Positions 14,724-63,794 of a stretch of DNA of 64,000 bases are shown here, in pieces. Each line of letters begins with the position of its first letter. Positions within the stretch are counted from its first letter, which is position 1. The notes under the pieces are model-generated. The model was not told the DNA's origin. It was given only the letters and a program-made list of their open reading frames with translations, and ran no database searches. Origin of the DNA: Trichothermofontia sichuanensis B231 (GTDB lineage: Bacteria > Cyanobacteriota > Cyanobacteriia > B231); NCBI RefSeq assembly GCF_026240635.1, contig NZ_CP110848.1, forward strand, positions 188,501-252,500, read 5' to 3'. The translations under genes were made by a program, and so were the position numbers.

Positions 14724-14999
14724 TACAGTCTTTACCTCAATCATCAAGTACAGTTTTATCTGGCTAGAATGGGGGCCGCCCACGGGTGTGGCTCTCACCC
14801 CGTGAGAAAAGGGGGTGGGAGAAAAGGGCTGCCGCTCGGATCCCAATCCAAACCTTATAGATAGTCGTTGCAATTTAGATTCAAACAGCGCCCTCACCCC
14901 CAGCCCCTCTCCCAGCGCGGGAGAGGGGAGTGAAAAACTGTATCGTTCTTATTGGGATTGACCATAATGGTGTACTGCGTCAATTAGGTAAAGGCTGTA
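14724..14999 (+). mobile_element. Family A repeat element with nested family B (copy A1)
   Basis: The left end is TACAGTCTTTACCT and the right end AGGTAAAGGCTGTA, terminal inverted repeats with one mismatch. The interior shares TCAATCATCAAGTACAGTTT and the GC-rich CCCTCACCCC stretches with other A copies. The copy is longer than the 225-bp type because a family B unit (14856-14967) is inserted at the TTA after CCAATCCAAACC. It has no coding capacity, which suggests a non-autonomous element. It lies between bcp and hemC and downstream of hemC. Confidence 0.8.
14856..14967 (+). mobile_element. Family B repeat element (copy B1), nested in A1
   Basis: It begins TATAGATAGTCGTTGCAATTTAG and ends GGATTGACCATAA. 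The core hairpin CCCTCTCCC-AGCGC-GGGAGAGGG is followed by AGTGAAAAACTGTATCGTTCTTA, shared with the other five B copies. TA lies on both sides, consistent with a TA target duplication. Confidence 0.7.
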
Positions 15000-15061
15000 T
15001 TTTCTTGTGGTAGGGGCAGACGGTACCCTCATTCCCCCGACGATTCCTAGGTCATTGCGGG

Positions 15062-17766: not shown

Positions 17767-17791
17767 TTTATGATTGCGGTAAAGGCTGTAT
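17767..17791 (-). repeat. Family A terminal remnant
   Basis: The sequence TTTATGATTGCGGTAAAGGC followed by TGTAT is the reverse complement of the left end of family A. No matching second end lies within the preceding 200 bp, so it is a truncated relic. It sits about 120 bp upstream of gcvT and may overlap its promoter region. Confidence 0.65.
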
Positions 17792-26461: not shown

Positions 26462-26752
26462 TACAGCCTTTACCGCAATCATAAAGTACAGTTTTACAGA
26501 GGTAGGATGGGGGCAGTCCACTGGTGCGGCCCTCACCCAAGTGGAGAGAAGGGGTTGGGGAATGAGGGCAACCAGTAGGATCCAGATCCAAACCTTAACT
26601 GTGTACTGATTGGCTCTCCTGAGTTTATGGTGGGGGCGCGTAGCGTCCCCACCATAAACTCAACGTTTCCGATCGTTTATTTGTAGTTGCTGATACTGTT
26701 TACCCCAAAATCCCAGAAGAGCCTACTGATTTAAATTAGCTAGAGGCTATAT
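26462..26752 (+). mobile_element. Family A element (copy A2) split by insertion of C2
   Basis: The left end is TACAGCCTTTACC followed by GCAATCATAAAGTACAGTTTTAC. The interior runs to CCAAACCTTAACTGTGTACTGATT (ends 26611). After C2, the right end resumes at 26724 as TACTGATT-TAAATTAGCTAGAGGCTATAT, which lines up with the intact right end of A3. Without C2 and one duplicated 8-mer, A2 would be a continuous A element. This orders the insertions: A2 first, C2 later. Confidence 0.85.
26604..26731 (+). mobile_element. Family C MITE-like element (copy C2) with 8-bp target duplication
   Basis: The element is 26612-26723, 112 bp. It is flanked by the perfect duplication TACTGATT (26604-26611 and 26724-26731). 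Ends are GGCTCTCCTGAG and CCCAGAAGAGCC. It differs from C1 at a single position (a T for a C in the inner hairpin loop-side arm), so it has moved recently. Orientation is as C1. Confidence 0.92.
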
Positions 26753-39542: not shown

Positions 39543-41036
39543 ATGCAGATTGAACTTGTTGACATTACTAAACGCTTTGGCCCCGTCCTTGCCAACGATC
39601 GCGTTTCCCTCACCGTCGCTGCCGGGAGTATCTGCGGTTTGCTCGGGGAAAATGGTGCGGGCAAAAGTACGCTGGTTAAAGTCCTCAGTGGCTTCGTTCG
39701 CCGCGATGGGGGTGAAATTCGATTAAACGGGCGAACCGTGGACATTCGCTCCCCGGCTGATGCGATCGCCCAAGGCATTGGCATGTTGCACCAGGATCCC
39801 CTGGACTTTCCCCCCCTATCCGTCCTGGAAAACTTTTGCCTGGGACAACCAGGACCTTGGATCGTATCCCGCCGTGCCGCACGTACCCAGTTACGAACCC
39901 TTGCCGACTCCCTGGGGTTTACCCTCGACCCCGATCGCTCCGTTGCCAGCTTAACCGTCGGAGAACGACAGCAACTCGAACTCCTGCGCCTCCTAGCCCT
40001 AGGCGTCCAAACCCTGATCCTGGACGAACCCACCACCGGTATCTCCGCCAGCCAAAAGCAGGCATTATTTGCCGCCATCCAAGCACTAGCCAAAACAGGG
40101 CGATCGCTGATCCTGGTCTCCCACAAGCTAGAGGATGTCCAGCAACTTTGCCACACGATCACGGTCATGCGCCAGGGGCGGGTCGTTGGCTCCCGGACCC
40201 TGCCCTGCGCCACGGCGGAACTGGTGACCCTGATGTTTGGACACGAACTAGCCCCCCCCAGTCCCAAGTCGATGCCTGAGCGAACATCTAGCCAACCAAT
40301 GCTGGCGTTAAAGAACCTGATCTGGCAGGCCCCTCCCTTATCGCTGCGAATTGACGACTTACAGGTGCAACCGGGGGAAGTGATCGGGTTGGCAGGGCTA
40401 GAGGGCAGTGGTCAGCGATCGCTCTTACTCCTATGTGCTGGACTATTGGCGGCCCAGGCAGGAACCCTGTGGGTAAATGGGGTTGACCTCACCCATCGTC
40501 CTTACGGGGTCTATCAGCACGCGGGTGTTGGCTTCCTCCCCGCCGACCGCCTGAAGGAAGGCTTAATTGCGGGCCTCACCATCCAACAACATGTAGCGGT
40601 GCGGGCAGCCACTCGACAATGGTTTGTGAATTGGCGACAGGCGTTCATAGCGGCCCAAGACGCGATCACCCGGTTCAATATTCGCGGACGCCCCAATACC
40701 CGGGTGGAAACCCTCTCCGGCGGCAACCAACAGCGTACCCAATTGGCCCTGTTACCCACGCCCTTAAACCTATTGCTGATGGAACACCCAACCCGTGGTC
40801 TCGATATAGAGTCCTCCCTCTGGGTGTGGCAGCAATTGTTGGCCCGCTGTCAGACCGGAACAGCCATTGTATTCACGTCATCGGATCTAGATGAAATTGT
40901 CCAGTACAGCGATCGCATCCTCGTCTTCAGTGGCGGGCAAGTGTCGGCTCCCCTGAACACCGCTGAAGTCACGATCGCCACCCTGGGTCGCCTGATTGGC
41001 GGGCAGTTCACCCTTCCTTCAGAAGTCGCGTTCTAG
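39543..41036 (+). CDS. Two-domain ABC ATPase, sugar/nucleoside (RbsA/BmpA) type, orphan
   Basis: The 497-residue protein has two fused ATPase domains. The first is complete: Walker A GLLGENGAGKSTLV, Q-loop HQDPLDFP, signature SLTVGERQQLELLRLL (weak), Walker B TLILDEPTTGIS and LVSHKLED. The second has GLAGLEGSGQRSLLLL (no canonical Lys-Ser/Thr), a signature LSGGNQQRTQLALL and a Walker B region LLLMEHPTRGLDIES in which His replaces the usual Glu after MEH. Such degenerate second halves are normal in the RbsA and nucleoside-type transporters. No permease or substrate-binding gene is adjacent, so it is an orphan whose partners must be elsewhere. Confidence 0.9.
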   Translation: MQIELVDITKRFGPVLANDRVSLTVAAGSICGLLGENGAGKSTLVKVLSGFVRRDGGEIRLNGRTVDIRSPADAIAQGIGMLHQDPLDFPPLSVLENFCLGQPGPWIVSRRAARTQLRTLADSLGFTLDPDRSVASLTVGERQQLELLRLLALGVQTLILDEPTTGISASQKQALFAAIQALAKTGRSLILVSHKLEDVQQLCHTITVMRQGRVVGSRTLPCATAELVTLMFGHELAPPSPKSMPERTSSQPMLALKNLIWQAPPLSLRIDDLQVQPGEVIGLAGLEGSGQRSLLLLCAGLLAAQAGTLWVNGVDLTHRPYGVYQHAGVGFLPADRLKEGLIAGLTIQQHVAVRAATRQWFVNWRQAFIAAQDAITRFNIRGRPNTRVETLSGGNQQRTQLALLPTPLNLLLMEHPTRGLDIESSLWVWQQLLARCQTGTAIVFTSSDLDEIVQYSDRILVFSGGQVSAPLNTAEVTIATLGRLIGGQFTLPSEVAF

Positions 41037-41051
41037 GTATAAGCGTTCTAG

Positions 41052-41276
41052 ATACAGCCTTTACCTCAATCATAAAGTACAGATTTATCTAGGTAGGATG
41101 GGGGTAGCCCCCTGGGGTGACCCTCACCCTAAATGCCTCTCCCAGAGCGCGAGAGGGACTTAAAAATCCGGCCCCCTTCGCCCTTTTTGGGAGAAGGGGT
41201 TGGGGGATAAGGGCTGTCGATCGGATCAAGATCCAAACCTTAATGGTGTACTGAGTAAATTAGGTAAAGGCTGTAT
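41052..41276 (+). mobile_element. Family A element, intact copy (A3)
   Basis: Perfect 15-bp terminal inverted repeats: ATACAGCCTTTACCT at 41052-41066 and its reverse complement AGGTAAAGGCTGTAT at 41262-41276. Total length is 225 bp. The TA within each end fits TA target duplication, as for Tc1/IS630-type transposition. The inside carries hairpins (CCTCTCCCAGAGCGCGAGAGG, CCCTTCGCCCTTTTTGGGAGAAGGGG). No ORF. This is the reference copy for the family. Confidence 0.9.
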
Positions 41277-41309: not shown

Positions 41310-42920
41310 TTAACTTAATTGCACCACTTTTTGGTTGGCCAGCAAAACCTGATGGGTCAATAAATCCTCGACCGTTATCCGGAGAAAGCGCTTGTCATCA
41401 ACCCAGAATTGGACCTTGATGCGATCGCTGCCGGGAAAACCAGGAGGATCGAGGCGTGCGATTGTACGGGCGCCCTCGCGATCGTTGAGCGGTTGTACGG
41501 AACGGCTTTGCCCCGTACTTTTGGTCACCAGGCGATCGCCCTCAAAATACACCTCGGTACTCCCCCGATCGGACCCCAATTCTCCAATAATTAACTCCAA
41601 ACTCGGCTGCTGTTCGACCGAGGCTCCCAGCACTAACTCCACCGGGTCGGGCATGGGGTAGGCTTGACCAACGGGGATCAAGGGATGCCAGTCGTGGCAA
41701 TTTTTGCGCCGATTCCAGTAACGGATACCATAGCTATGGTAGAGGAAATCCTTAACCTCAATCCCCTGGTTGAGTTGTAAGGCCCCAGTTGCGATCGCCG
41801 TTAAGGGTTTGTGGGCTTGCAGCTTATCTGCGGTGAAATAGGTCTGTGCCCAGGTTTGGACCGCTGGCATTTGGGCGGTCCCCCCAACCAATAGCACCGC
41901 ATCAATATCTGTTGCTTCGATGCCCTGGCGGCGGGCCTGTTGCAATACCTGGGTCATCGCGTCATCCAGCCGTTGGAAGAATTGGTTAGCCTGCAAGATC
42001 GCCTCTAGTTGAGAGCGATCGAGACTCAACTCATAGCTATCCAGTGTGGCCTCATCAAAAAATACTTCCGTTGCCTGGGTTTGGTGAGACAACCGAATTT
42101 TTAAGCGCTCTGCCAAGCGGGTTACCAGGGGTGAAGCACTCACCCCCAGCGTCTCGACAAAATGATCCACCAGCCAGTGGTCAATATCCACCCCCCCCAG
42201 CGTTAACCCCGCCTTCGCCAGTACTCGCGCCAGCCGAGGCCGTTGGCCGGACGCTTGCGCTAGGTTACGATCGCCCCACTTGAGAATAAACCCCAAGGGT
42301 TTGCGTTCCAGTTGCCCCCCCAGTTGCCCCCCTAGGTCCAGGCGCACCAGCGACAGGTCACAGGTTCCCCCGCCCAAGTCCAAGACCAGTAGCAATTGGC
42401 GATCGGTAATGCCATAGCCCAGGGCCGCCGCCGTCGGTTCATCCAGTAATTGGACTTGGGGAATACTCAAGGTTTGGCACACCTGGCCCAGCCAGTGACG
42501 ATAGGCTTCAAAACTATCCACTGGTACCGTCAAGACCAGGGCATCCACTTCTGTCGGGGTCATCTGGCGCAGGGTTGTCACCACCCGTTCCAGGAACCAT
42601 TGCCCCACCTGTTCAAACGAAATCACCCGATCGTCTAATTCCGGCAAAAACCCCTGTACGGGTGTCCCTATCCCCCGCTTAAAGTTCCGGAAAAAGCGCG
42701 GGTCATTATTGAGGTCTAACCCCCGATCACGCACCGGCTGGCCGACGATCGTCTTTCCCTGGGCCGCATCCTCCACATACAGCAGGCTGGGGATTACGGG
42801 CGGATTTTCCCCTTGGCGTAGACTCAGTTCATCGAGATCGAGCACTTCTGGTTGTTGGGTGACCGGGTTCCAGCGGGCTAGGACAGTGTTACTTGTACCG
42901 AAGTCGATCGCGTAGGTCAT
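41310..42920 (-). CDS. Hsp70-family (DnaK-like) protein
   Basis: The 536-residue protein has an actin/Hsp70 ATPase. Phosphate 1 is YAIDFGTSNTVLARWN. Phosphate 2 is LVLDLGGGTCDLSLVRLD, with LDEPTAAALGYG before it. The adenosine motif is AVLLVGGTAQMPAVQTW. The substrate-binding part is short and lacks the DnaK lid. It is the Slr0086-like type of Hsp70 homologue, distinct from the DnaK chaperones. Client unknown, cytosolic. The divergent histidine kinase begins about 420 bp away. Confidence 0.88.
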   Translation of the reverse strand: MTYAIDFGTSNTVLARWNPVTQQPEVLDLDELSLRQGENPPVIPSLLYVEDAAQGKTIVGQPVRDRGLDLNNDPRFFRNFKRGIGTPVQGFLPELDDRVISFEQVGQWFLERVVTTLRQMTPTEVDALVLTVPVDSFEAYRHWLGQVCQTLSIPQVQLLDEPTAAALGYGITDRQLLLVLDLGGGTCDLSLVRLDLGGQLGGQLERKPLGFILKWGDRNLAQASGQRPRLARVLAKAGLTLGGVDIDHWLVDHFVETLGVSASPLVTRLAERLKIRLSHQTQATEVFFDEATLDSYELSLDRSQLEAILQANQFFQRLDDAMTQVLQQARRQGIEATDIDAVLLVGGTAQMPAVQTWAQTYFTADKLQAHKPLTAIATGALQLNQGIEVKDFLYHSYGIRYWNRRKNCHDWHPLIPVGQAYPMPDPVELVLGASVEQQPSLELIIGELGSDRGSTEVYFEGDRLVTKSTGQSRSVQPLNDREGARTIARLDPPGFPGSDRIKVQFWVDDKRFLRITVEDLLTHQVLLANQKVVQLS

Positions 42921-46821: not shown

Positions 46822-47172
46822 TACAGCCTCTGCCTCACGCATAACGTACAGTTTGACCGGGGTAGGATGGGGGCACCCCCCTAGTGCGACCTTCACCCTC
46901 AATCCCTCTCCTAGAGCGGGAGAGCAAGGGGCTTGCAAATTCGGCACCCCTCTGCCACCTCCCCCCGTAAACGGGGGCTAGGAGATGAGGGCTGCCGGTA
47001 GGATCCAGATCCAAACCTTAACCATGTACTACTTATAGCTATTACAATTTAGGCTGAAACAGCCCCCTCACCCCCAGCCCCTCTCCCAGAGCGGGAGAGG
47101 GGAGTGAAAAACTGTATCGTTCTTATTTGGATTGACCATAACCGTGTACTAAGTCAATTGGATAAAGACTAT
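46822..47172 (+). mobile_element. Family A/B composite element (copy A4)
   Basis: The left end is TACAGCCTCTGCCTCACGCATAACGTACAG (diverged) and the right end GGATAAAGACTATA. A complete B unit (47034-47141) is embedded. Sequence after B (CCGTGTACTAAGTCAATTGG) repeats part of that before B (CCATGTACTAC), so the copy is a mosaic, perhaps by recombination between a plain A and an A with B. Total about 351 bp. It sits downstream of tkt. Confidence 0.75.
47034..47141 (+). mobile_element. Family B repeat element (copy B4), inside A4
   Basis: Begins TATAGCTATTACAATTTAGG and ends GGATTGACCATAA. Nearly identical to B1, B2 and B6 in the core. Confidence 0.75.
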
Positions 47173-47176
47173 AACA

Positions 47177-53879: not shown

Positions 53880-54076
53880 TAAGATCCCAACCCTTTCCCC
53901 CATTTGGGCGAAGGGGAGTGGGATTGGCAAGTCCCTCTCCCGCCAAGTCCCTCTCCCGCTTTGGGAGAGGGATCGAGGGTGAAGCTTGCACCCGTGGGCT
54001 ACTCCCAGCCTACCCAGGTAACGCTGGACTTTATGATTGGGGTAACTGGACTTTATGATTGGGGTAAAGGCTGTAT
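53880..54076 (-). mobile_element. Family A remnant with internal duplication (copy A7)
   Basis: Inverted A copy lacking the outer end on its left side. It ends GGGGTAAAGGCTGTAT, the reverse complement of the A left end. Within it a 22-bp unit (CTGGACTTTATGATTGGGGT + AA) is tandemly duplicated at 54024-54045 and 54046-54067. The hairpin CCCTCTCCC-GCTTT-GGGAGAGGG also appears twice in part. Confidence 0.7.
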
Positions 54077-60519: not shown

Positions 60520-61728
60520 ATGGCAGCAACACTCTTGGCCGATCGCTATGAGGTCCTCCGTCAACTTGGCCAGCAGCCAGGACGCCGTACCCTTCTTGCC
60601 TATGATTCCCAAACCCAGCAGCAGGTAGTGATCAAGCTCATTGCGCTGGCGCAGCAGCTAGAGGGTGATGCCCTACGTTTGTTTCAACGGGAGGCGGAAA
60701 CCCTCAAGACTCTCGCCCACCCCGCTATTCCCCAATATATCGACTACTTTGAGATGAATTCCCGGGCAGGCCGGGGGTTAGCTCTTGTGCAGACCTATAT
60801 GCAGGGGAAGTCGTTGGAGGAATATGTCAATAGTGGTCGCATATTTAGCGAAACGGAAGTGAAGGCGATCGCTAGGGCTGTACTGACCATTTTGGTGTAC
60901 CTCCATAGCCAGGAGCCACCGGTTATTCACCGGGATATTAAACCGGGTAACATTTTAGTGGGAACTTCACCTCAAGGGGAAACCGGACGGATTTATCTCG
61001 TTGATTTTGGTTCGGTGAAAAGCTTTAGCGATAATGAGGAAACCAATTCCTTTACGGTCGTGGGAACCTATGGCTATATGCCGCCTGAACAGTTTAGTGG
61101 TCGTGCCATTCCAGCGTCGGATTTGTATAGTTTAGGAGCCACCTTATTAACTTTGCTGACGGGCACTCATCCTTCCAGCCTACCGCAACGGGGAATGCGG
61201 ATCGATGTGCAGCAAATTCCCAATTTAAGTTTGGAGTTGGGGGAGTGGCTGAGTCGTTTAACAGAGCCGAATTTGGCCCGTCGATTTACCTCCGCTCAGG
61301 AAGCCCTGGTGGCCCTGGATGTGCCCCTGCCCAGTGCTCCCCCTGTACCCAAGGCGGTGGCCCAGCCGGTGGATAGTAAAATCCAATATCTGCGGCAAGG
61401 GGAAACGCTGGAGTTAGTGATTCCGTCTTCCTTAGGTAAAACACGCTTGGAAATTACGGCCCAGCAGATTTCCCTGAGTAAACAGATGTTTGGTCTACGG
61501 TACAGTCGTCCGAAGACGGCACGGCGGCGGGATATTGAGCAGATTGAATATATTAAACCGACCTACACTGAGAGTCAGGGAGCAGCAGTAGAGCCGGAAA
61601 TTATCATCCATGCCAAGGATCAACAGTTTGAGTTGGGTGGGGGACAATTAACGGAGGCAGAATTGGATTGGTTAGCCTATGAACTGTGTGATGTCCTGAA
61701 GTTGCCGATCACCCGTCGTCATGCCTAG
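60520..61728 (+). CDS. Serine/threonine protein kinase with C-terminal non-kinase domain
   Basis: The start is the ATG at 60520 (MAATLLADRYEVLRQLGQQPGRRTLLAYDSQ). The 402-residue Hanks-type kinase has a glycine-poor P-loop, the catalytic Lys in QQVVIKLIALAQQL, HRD-type VIHRDIKPGNILV and DFG in YLVDFGSVKSF, then VGTYGYMPPEQFSG. The C-terminal about 120 residues (IQYLRQGETLELVIPSSLGKTRLEITAQQISLS ... ELGGGQLTEAELDWLAYELCDVLKL) form a beta-rich domain that looks PH-like. No membrane span, so cytosolic. Substrates unknown. It is divergent from pcyA, with only about 100 bp between starts. Confidence 0.9.
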   Translation: MAATLLADRYEVLRQLGQQPGRRTLLAYDSQTQQQVVIKLIALAQQLEGDALRLFQREAETLKTLAHPAIPQYIDYFEMNSRAGRGLALVQTYMQGKSLEEYVNSGRIFSETEVKAIARAVLTILVYLHSQEPPVIHRDIKPGNILVGTSPQGETGRIYLVDFGSVKSFSDNEETNSFTVVGTYGYMPPEQFSGRAIPASDLYSLGATLLTLLTGTHPSSLPQRGMRIDVQQIPNLSLELGEWLSRLTEPNLARRFTSAQEALVALDVPLPSAPPVPKAVAQPVDSKIQYLRQGETLELVIPSSLGKTRLEITAQQISLSKQMFGLRYSRPKTARRRDIEQIEYIKPTYTESQGAAVEPEIIIHAKDQQFELGGGQLTEAELDWLAYELCDVLKLPITRRHA

Positions 61729-61853
61729 GTAAGATCTACAAGATGCATCTGACTTGTACGACTCTGACCCTAAATCCCTCTCCCGTTCTGGCAGAGGGAC
61801 TTGAAAATTCGGCGTACCTGGGTGTCTTAAGTACTGAAAAACAGATGGCTTCA
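61729..61853. repeat. Family A internal fragment
   Basis: Sequence around 61760-61815 (CGACTCTGACCCTAAATCCC, GGCAGAGGGACTTGAAAATTCGGC) matches the inside of A3 and A4 but neither end is present. A relic next to the complete B6. Confidence 0.55.
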
Positions 61854-63474: not shown

Positions 63475-63697
63475 ATACAGCCTTGACCTAATTTACTCAG
63501 TACACCGTTAAGGTTTGGATCTGGATCCGACCAGCAGCCCTCATCCCCCAACCCCTTCTCCCAAGTGGGGAGAAGGGGAGCCGGATTTGCCAGTCCCTCT
63601 CCCGCTCTGGGAGAGGGATTTAGGGTGAGGGCCGCACCCGCGGGTTGCACCCATTCTACCCGGGTAAAACTGTACTTTATGATTGAGGTAAAGGCTG
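63475..63697 (-). mobile_element. Family A element, near-intact inverted copy (A5)
   Basis: It starts ATACAGCCTTGACCTAATTTACTC and ends TTTATGATTGAGGTAAAGGCTG, the reverse orientation of A3. Length about 223 bp. The outermost TAT at the right is replaced by GAG. It carries the CCCTCTCCCGCTCTGGGAGAGGG hairpin. It lies between an alpha/beta hydrolase gene and an EAL-domain gene. Confidence 0.85.
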
Positions 63698-63794
63698 GAG
63701 TCACTCAGTTGCCCTCACTTCTCACTGCTCTATCCTCACTTCTAAATTAAGGGTGAGGACTGCAAAAGTGGGGCTGCATCTGCTATCGGGTGCC

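What the first reader, a model, noticed from the sequence alone, without database searches (positions are those of the whole stretch)
41052..41276. Family A: 225-bp element with perfect 15-bp terminal inverted repeats
ATACAGCCTTTACCT and AGGTAAAGGCTGTAT are exact reverse complements at the ends of a 225-bp non-coding unit. At least five more full or partial copies lie at 14724, 26462, 46822, 63475 and 53880. Ends with TA suggest Tc1/IS630-type non-autonomous elements. The hairpins inside (CCCTCTCCC...GGGAGAGGG) may affect transcripts.
Basis: partly seen in the sequence, partly recalled or inferred. Interest (0 to 1): 0.68.

Follow-up and report, generated by a model that had tools for sequence, protein, structure and literature searches.

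The report
IS630-type MITE with borrowed double-hairpin core
This is a small, non-coding jumping-DNA element present in at least about 140 copies in the hot-spring cyanobacterium Trichothermofontia sichuanensis; its ends show it was moved by a Tc1/IS630-type transposase (now only seen broken in this genome), and its middle is a two-hairpin cassette that turns up with quite different ends in about half of the cyanobacterial genomes sampled and whose hairpins have repeatedly flipped around.

Summary
The 225-bp unit at 41052 is one of at least ~140 copies in a 4,436,989-bp chromosome, identified by its exact size as Trichothermofontia sichuanensis B231. Its ends read TACAGCCTTTACC-N11-GTACA, framed by TA. 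The TA is a target duplication: 61 of 76 two-ended copies have TA at both ends, the target is symmetric (AGA-TA-WCT), and the window's own copy at 63475 has unoccupied paralogous sites with a single TA. Degraded IS630 elements in the same genome, and related IS630s in other cyanobacteria, carry the same two-part terminal motif at the same spacing, so this is an IS630/Tc1-type MITE. Copies are ~10% diverged and no intact transposase of the type was found, so it is probably no longer moving. The ~94-bp interior is not IS630-derived: it occurs in 192 of 390 cyanobacterial genomes, often inside other termini (commonly GGGTGCATCCCA). And each hairpin has been inverted in place, separately and apparently repeatedly (16 and 17 of 62 copies), as predicted for inter-strand template switching. 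There is no covariation signal for RNA-structure selection.

The parts
41053..41275 (+). Reference full-length copy (TA...TA); 223 bp with both TA, element proper 41055-41273
   Evidence: intergenic between the ORFs 39543-41036 (+) and 41310-42920 (-)
41053..41081 (+). Left terminal repeat: outer block TACAGCCTTTACCT and inner block GTACA (positions 25-29)
   Evidence: same two blocks at the same spacing at both ends of the MITE and of IS630 elements
41247..41275 (-). Right terminal repeat TACAGCCTTTACCTAATTTACTCAGTACA (read on the minus strand)
41120..41215 (+). Double-hairpin core (about 94 bp) shared with about half of sampled Cyanobacteriia genomes
   Evidence: 192 of 390 genomes, hits mostly confined to about query 45-165
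41135..41157 (+). Hairpin H1 (family consensus CCCTCTCCC-AGAGC-GGGAGAGGG), found in both orientations among copies
41173..41200 (+). Hairpin H2 (family consensus CCCCTTCTCCC-CACTT-GGGAGAAGGGG), found in both orientations among copies
14724..15000 (+). Family A copy split by a nested copy of a second repeat (family B, about 14858-14966)
   Evidence: compared with intact A sequence CCTTAATGG, the B insertion is flanked by TA on both sides
26462..26752 (+). Family A copy split by a nested ISL3-like MITE (family C, TACTGAT repeated at both edges)
46822..47174 (+). Family A copy with a nested family B repeat near its right end
53886..54076 (-). Truncated family A copy, left half only
17767..17791 (-). 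Isolated family A terminus (25 bp)
61722..61818 (+). Internal family A-like fragment (model positions 34-125), no ends
63475..63699 (-). Full family A copy lying inside another dispersed repeat; paralogous empty sites carry a single TA (right TA of this copy mutated to GA)

Best explanation
[quoted passage not shown] Its transposase, supplied in trans by an IS630-family insertion sequence, recognised a two-part end (TACAGCCTTTACC outside, GTACA at positions 25-29 inside), cut the element out and inserted it at TA dinucleotides, duplicating the TA. The interior is a cargo and not a remnant of a transposase gene: a double-hairpin cassette that occurs inside several unrelated small elements in cyanobacteria. 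In this genome it probably came in with the left edge of a GGGTGCATCCCA-type element. The family spread long ago to at least ~140 sites, mostly intergenic, and is probably inactive now. Within resident copies each hairpin has been inverted in place many times, most likely by inter-strand template switching during replication. Shown: the ends, the TA duplication, the copy number, the termini shared with IS630, the wide distribution of the core, and the in-place inversions. Inferred: mobilisation in trans, present inactivity, the order of capture, and the inversion mechanism (about 0.6 for template switching). The confidence given is for the IS630-type MITE identity.
For: Copy number: (140 left ends, 108 right ends, 76 copies with both). 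TA ends in 61 of 76, symmetric target AGA-TA-WCT, no longer duplication. Empty sites with a single TA for the window copy 63475, and a gapless empty site for the copy at 4210452 inside an ISL3-like MITE. IS630 lineage 1 (about 1031 bp, DDE_3, ends TACAGCCTTTCCC and TACAGCATTTCCT plus GTACA at 25-29). Lineage 2 remnants with TACAGCCTTTACC ends. Among 30 relatives of lineage 2 in other cyanobacteria, those carrying this end motif are the closest ones (58% identity or more), e.g. G035 TACAGCCTTTACCT...CAGTACG and a 1037-bp G239 element with both ends. Core in 192 of 390 genomes, generally without these ends. Core inside other termini. Left-edge similarity to the GGGTGCA type (12.0/21 against 5.5 shuffled). 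Hairpin inversions, independent of each other (p=1.0); 11 and 10 changes on a tree built without the hairpins. Divergence from consensus 10%.
Against: No intact transposase with matching ends was found in this genome: every lineage 1 copy covering that point shares an in-frame TGA, and lineage 2 is truncated. MITE ends differ from the less decayed lineage at position 11 (A against C). Fifteen of 76 two-ended copies lack TA at one side, attributed here to mutation. The tree for the inversions is weakly resolved (26 of 54 inner branches open), and gene conversion among copies could spread an inversion. The right edge of the cassette does not match the GGGTGCA type.
Confidence: 0.9

Rival explanations
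1. A functional chromosomal repeat (terminator, attenuator or small RNA) kept by selection, with the inverted repeats serving structure and not transposition.
For: The consensus folds far better than shuffles as a single strand (z -7.2), and copies are nearly all intergenic (58 of 62).
Against: No covariation above shuffles in the stems. No bias to convergent gene pairs (11 convergent, 15 divergent, 31 tandem). TA duplication and ends shared with IS630 elements.
Confidence: 0.05
2. A REP/BIME-like element moved by a Y1 (HUH) transposase that recognises the hairpins.
For: Paired hairpins in many copies; the core alone is widespread.
Against: TA target duplication and DDE-type ends; no GTAG/CGTC tag seen at the hairpin feet in the alignment.
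Confidence: 0.03
3. The hairpin inversions arise by ectopic gene conversion from hairpins lying in the opposite orientation elsewhere in the genome and not by local template switching.
For: Many similar hairpins exist, including in family B, which also shows both loop orientations. In other genomes H1 and H2 loops of one copy are identical or reverse complements more often than expected (4 and 6 of 56, p 0.0016 and 0.0002).
Against: Conversion tracts would have to be limited to about 23-27 bp. Arm mismatches flip together with the loop (13 of 13 and 2 of 2, p 0.0095), as in one local event, although a converted whole hairpin would look the same.
Confidence: 0.25
4. Family A is a plain internal-deletion derivative of a local IS630 element.
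For: Shared terminal blocks of about 29 bp.
Against: Beyond the ends no similarity to either IS630 lineage was seen; the interior is the pan-cyanobacterial cassette.
Confidence: 0.07

Closest known systems
ISY100 (ISTcSa), Synechocystis IS630/Tc1-mariner element (PMC2170065)
   Same: Cyanobacterial IS630 family, insertion almost only at TA with TA duplication, 24-bp imperfect terminal repeats bound by a two-HTH transposase domain; 30 bp of each end suffice for transposition, close to the about 29 bp conserved here.
   Different: ISY100 is autonomous and active; family A has no transposase gene and a different interior. End sequences could not be compared letter by letter.
Lineage 1 and lineage 2 IS630 elements of the same genome (for example G000 2971290-2972320 and 1960450)
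   Same: Outer block TACAGCCTTTmCC and inner GTAC(A/G) at positions 25-29; lineage 2 has the identical outer block.
   Different: About 1 kb (lineage 1) with a broken transposase gene; no double-hairpin core.
GGGTGCATCCCA...TGGGATGCACCC small elements of other cyanobacteria (for example Kaiparowitsia, Vasconcelosia, Petrachloros)
   Same: The same double-hairpin core and a similar left edge.
   Different: Different terminal repeats, so presumably a different transposase.
Nezha and other bacterial MITEs such as Correia and Chunjie (review PMC10969869)
   Same: Short, non-coding, terminal inverted repeats, many mostly intergenic copies with decayed members.

Membership tests
IS630/Tc1-mariner-type MITE | Terminal inverted repeats matching IS630-family elements | tested here: met
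IS630/Tc1-mariner-type MITE | TA target with TA duplication | tested here: met
   61 of 76 copies TA/TA; paralogous empty sites
IS630/Tc1-mariner-type MITE | Short, dispersed, multi-copy, mostly intergenic, no transposase gene | tested here: met
IS630/Tc1-mariner-type MITE | Mobilised in trans by a related transposase | not testable with these tools
   needs a transposition assay; no intact transposase of the type found in the genome
Internal-deletion derivative of a local IS630 | Interior derived from the parent IS | tested here: not met
   similarity limited to the termini; interior is the widespread cassette
REP/BIME (GTAG- or CGTC-tagged palindromes) | Conserved tetranucleotide tag at the foot of the hairpin | tested here: not met
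   no such tag at the feet of H1 or H2 in the 30-copy alignment, by reading
Nezha (cyanobacterial MITE) | Nezha terminal repeats | not tested
   the sequence was not in the papers available here
Structured RNA or terminator element | Compensatory changes in the stems | tested here: not met
   covariation score 0.038 against 0.035 shuffled, 134 of 500 shuffles as high

The most novel reading that the evidence does not exclude
The ~94-bp double-hairpin cassette is a selfish unit in its own right. It moves between unrelated small transposable elements across cyanobacteria by a hairpin- or replication-dependent route and re-uses whatever transposase ends it lands in; its hairpin inversions and H1-H2 loop exchanges are traces of that route.
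Probability: 0.2. Interest if true: 0.75.

Novelty: new variant of a known kind. Interest (0 to 1): 0.5.

Why it matters
As an IS630-type MITE family this is ordinary, though abundant and now well anchored (ends, target, empty sites, parent IS type). Its interior is less ordinary: one cassette under several different sets of ends in about half of sampled cyanobacterial genomes suggests that small elements exchange cargo, which raises the question of how. The copies are also a natural record of hairpin inversion. A study of rRNA genes (PMC8794818) named compensatory change with loop inversion as the strongest support for inter-strand template switching but found it extremely rare there; here each hairpin is inverted in about a quarter of copies, with arm mismatches flipping along. 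That makes the mechanism directly testable in a bacterium.

Tried and rejected
Order-level comparison gave only the window's own genome, so there were no sister-strain empty sites. An exact scan of named genomes for the left end gave nothing (the window's own genome may be left out there). In a check of six other genomes the full end motif was found once, at the end of a short G038 contig; contamination cannot be excluded, so it is not used as evidence of spread. No phage record matched, and only the core matched five cyanobacterial plasmids. Selection on hairpin pairing was considered and rejected. Convergent-gene (terminator) preference was considered and rejected. A first motif script for the core timed out and was replaced by BLAST. 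Literature searches with the core sequence found nothing relevant, which does not prove it undescribed, since most subscription papers are missing.

Full report
Observation. The 15-bp perfect terminal repeats are at the stated coordinates, and all five further places hold copies or fragments, three of them split by other nested repeats. The window lies in a single 4,436,989-bp contig, exactly the chromosome size published for Trichothermofontia sichuanensis B231 (PMC10172474). The terminal 13-mer with at most one mismatch occurs 334 times against 11 for the reversed pattern. A profile search of 334 kb fetched around such hits found 187 elements or fragments, 140 with a left end, 108 with a right end and 76 with both.

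Ends and target. Of 76 two-ended copies, 61 begin with TA and end with TA. Outside the TA the flanks prefer A at -3 (41/76) and G at -2 (30/76) on the left, and mirror-image C at +2 (30/76) and T at +3 (34/76) on the right, with no longer direct duplication. Joining the flanks of each copy with a single TA and searching the fetched DNA gave paralogous empty sites. The window copy at 63475 lies in another dispersed repeat whose unoccupied copy near 703322 reads GAGATAGTCAC with one TA; its own right TA has mutated to GA. The copy at 4210452 lies inside an ISL3-like MITE with many gapless empty paralogs, where the TA itself is variable.

Transposase relatives. The genome holds several copies of an IS630 element of about 1031 bp (DDE_3 and IS630 helix-turn-helix domains) with ends TACAGCCTTTCCC-N11-GTACA and TACAGCATTTCCT-N11-GTACA. 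The MITE ends are TACAGCCTTTACC-N11-GTACA on both sides: the same blocks at the same spacing. A second, 34%-identical lineage survives as a remnant at 1960450 whose end has the identical outer block (TACAGCCTTTACC...GTACG), and another remnant at 4201104 ends GACAGCCTTTACC...AGTACA. Among 30 relatives of lineage 2 from other cyanobacteria, elements with this end motif are the closest ones, including G035 with the identical outer block and a 1037-bp G239 element with both ends. All lineage 1 copies covering the site share one in-frame TGA, and at least three also carry a frameshift. Family A copies average 10% from their consensus, and the closest pair differs by 5%. I infer that the family is old and probably immobile today. 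ISY100 shows that a cyanobacterial IS630 transposase acts on about 30 bp of each end and inserts at TA (PMC2170065).

The interior. In a class-wide sample, 192 of 390 genomes (87 of 160 genera) match the MITE, but nearly all listed matches are confined to about positions 45-165, the double-hairpin core, with the best at 94% identity. The end motif was absent from five of six genomes checked and found once in the sixth, at a contig edge. In 63 flanked core copies from other genomes, 29 have GGGTGCATCCCA-like repeats on both sides and 43 on at least one; others have further, different flanks. The 21 bp left of the core in family A match the GGGTGCA type (mean 12.0/21 against 5.5 shuffled; copies without that terminus 6.0 against 4.9), while the right side does not. 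So family A looks like a chimera: IS630-type ends around a cassette, probably taken up with one edge of another small element. The order of events is inferred. In named genomes an exact pattern for the core hit only cyanobacteria (22 stretches).

Hairpin inversion. Oriented by the element's ends, the H1 loop reads AGAGC in 30 copies and its exact reverse complement GCTCT in 15; the H2 loop reads CACTT in 18 and AAGTG in 10 (57 full copies). Changing AGAGC to GCTCT by point mutation needs all five bases to change, against about 10% divergence overall. With 62 copies scored for both, H1 is inverted in 16 and H2 in 17, with no association between them (p=1.0), so hairpins flip one at a time. Where H2 has the common arm mismatch, it sits on the left with the forward loop (13 of 13) and on the right with the inverted loop (2 of 2; p=0.0095), so arms and loop turn together. 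On a tree built without the hairpin columns the H1 state needs 11 changes for 14 inverted copies and H2 10 for 11, consistent with recurrence, although the tree is weakly resolved. In other genomes, H1 and H2 loops within one copy are identical (4 of 56) or reverse complements (6 of 56) more often than shuffles (p 0.0016, 0.0002), hinting at exchange between the two hairpins; related copies in that set are not fully independent. A study of rRNA and microRNA hairpins (PMC8794818) describes loop inversion as a product of inter-strand template switching and found it very rare in rRNA genes.

No sign of RNA function. The stems are 93.3% paired, but covariation equals shuffles (0.038 against 0.035). 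Of 62 copies with enough flank, 58 are intergenic, with 11 convergent, 15 divergent and 31 tandem contexts where both neighbours could be called. The strong single-strand fold (z -7.2) follows from the inverted repeats.

Verdict. The unexpected parts are the shared cassette and the recurrent hairpin inversion.

Noticed in passing
window 17580, 47034, 61854 (+), 55964 (-); nested at about 14858-14966 and 47034-47140: A second repeat family (B; TATAGTCATTGCAATTTAGGCTG...GGATTGACCATA), about 110 bp, single hairpin, inserted within family A copies, apparently also flanked by TA; its hairpin loop also occurs in both orientations.
   Followed up: partly
window 26608-26722 and 17535; many G000 paralogs: A third family (C) of about 112 bp with ISL3-like ends (GGCTCTTCTGGG / GGCTCTCCTGAG), which serves as an empty-site reference for a family A insertion.
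   Followed up: partly
G000 2971290-2972320, 4283211-4284240, 3397405-3398419, 2989290 onward (L061, L065, L064, L063): Near-identical IS630 copies all share the same in-frame TGA in the transposase, so they multiplied while carrying it: either helped in trans or read through.
   Followed up: no
L283, L291, L294, L295 (Leptolyngbyaceae MP9P1.79), L131 and L151 (G304, matching Kovacikia minuta): The core also sits in still other flanks (for example GTTTTTGTGGAGGTGCTGG...GTCCGAACTATTG, and a TTAACC...GGTTAATAAC type), suggesting at least four kinds of carrier.
   Followed up: partly
L304, L148, L123: Within one core copy the H1 and H2 loops are exact reverse complements of each other (CTCAT/ATGAG, AGGGC/GCCCT, AGAAC/GTTCT).
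   Followed up: partly
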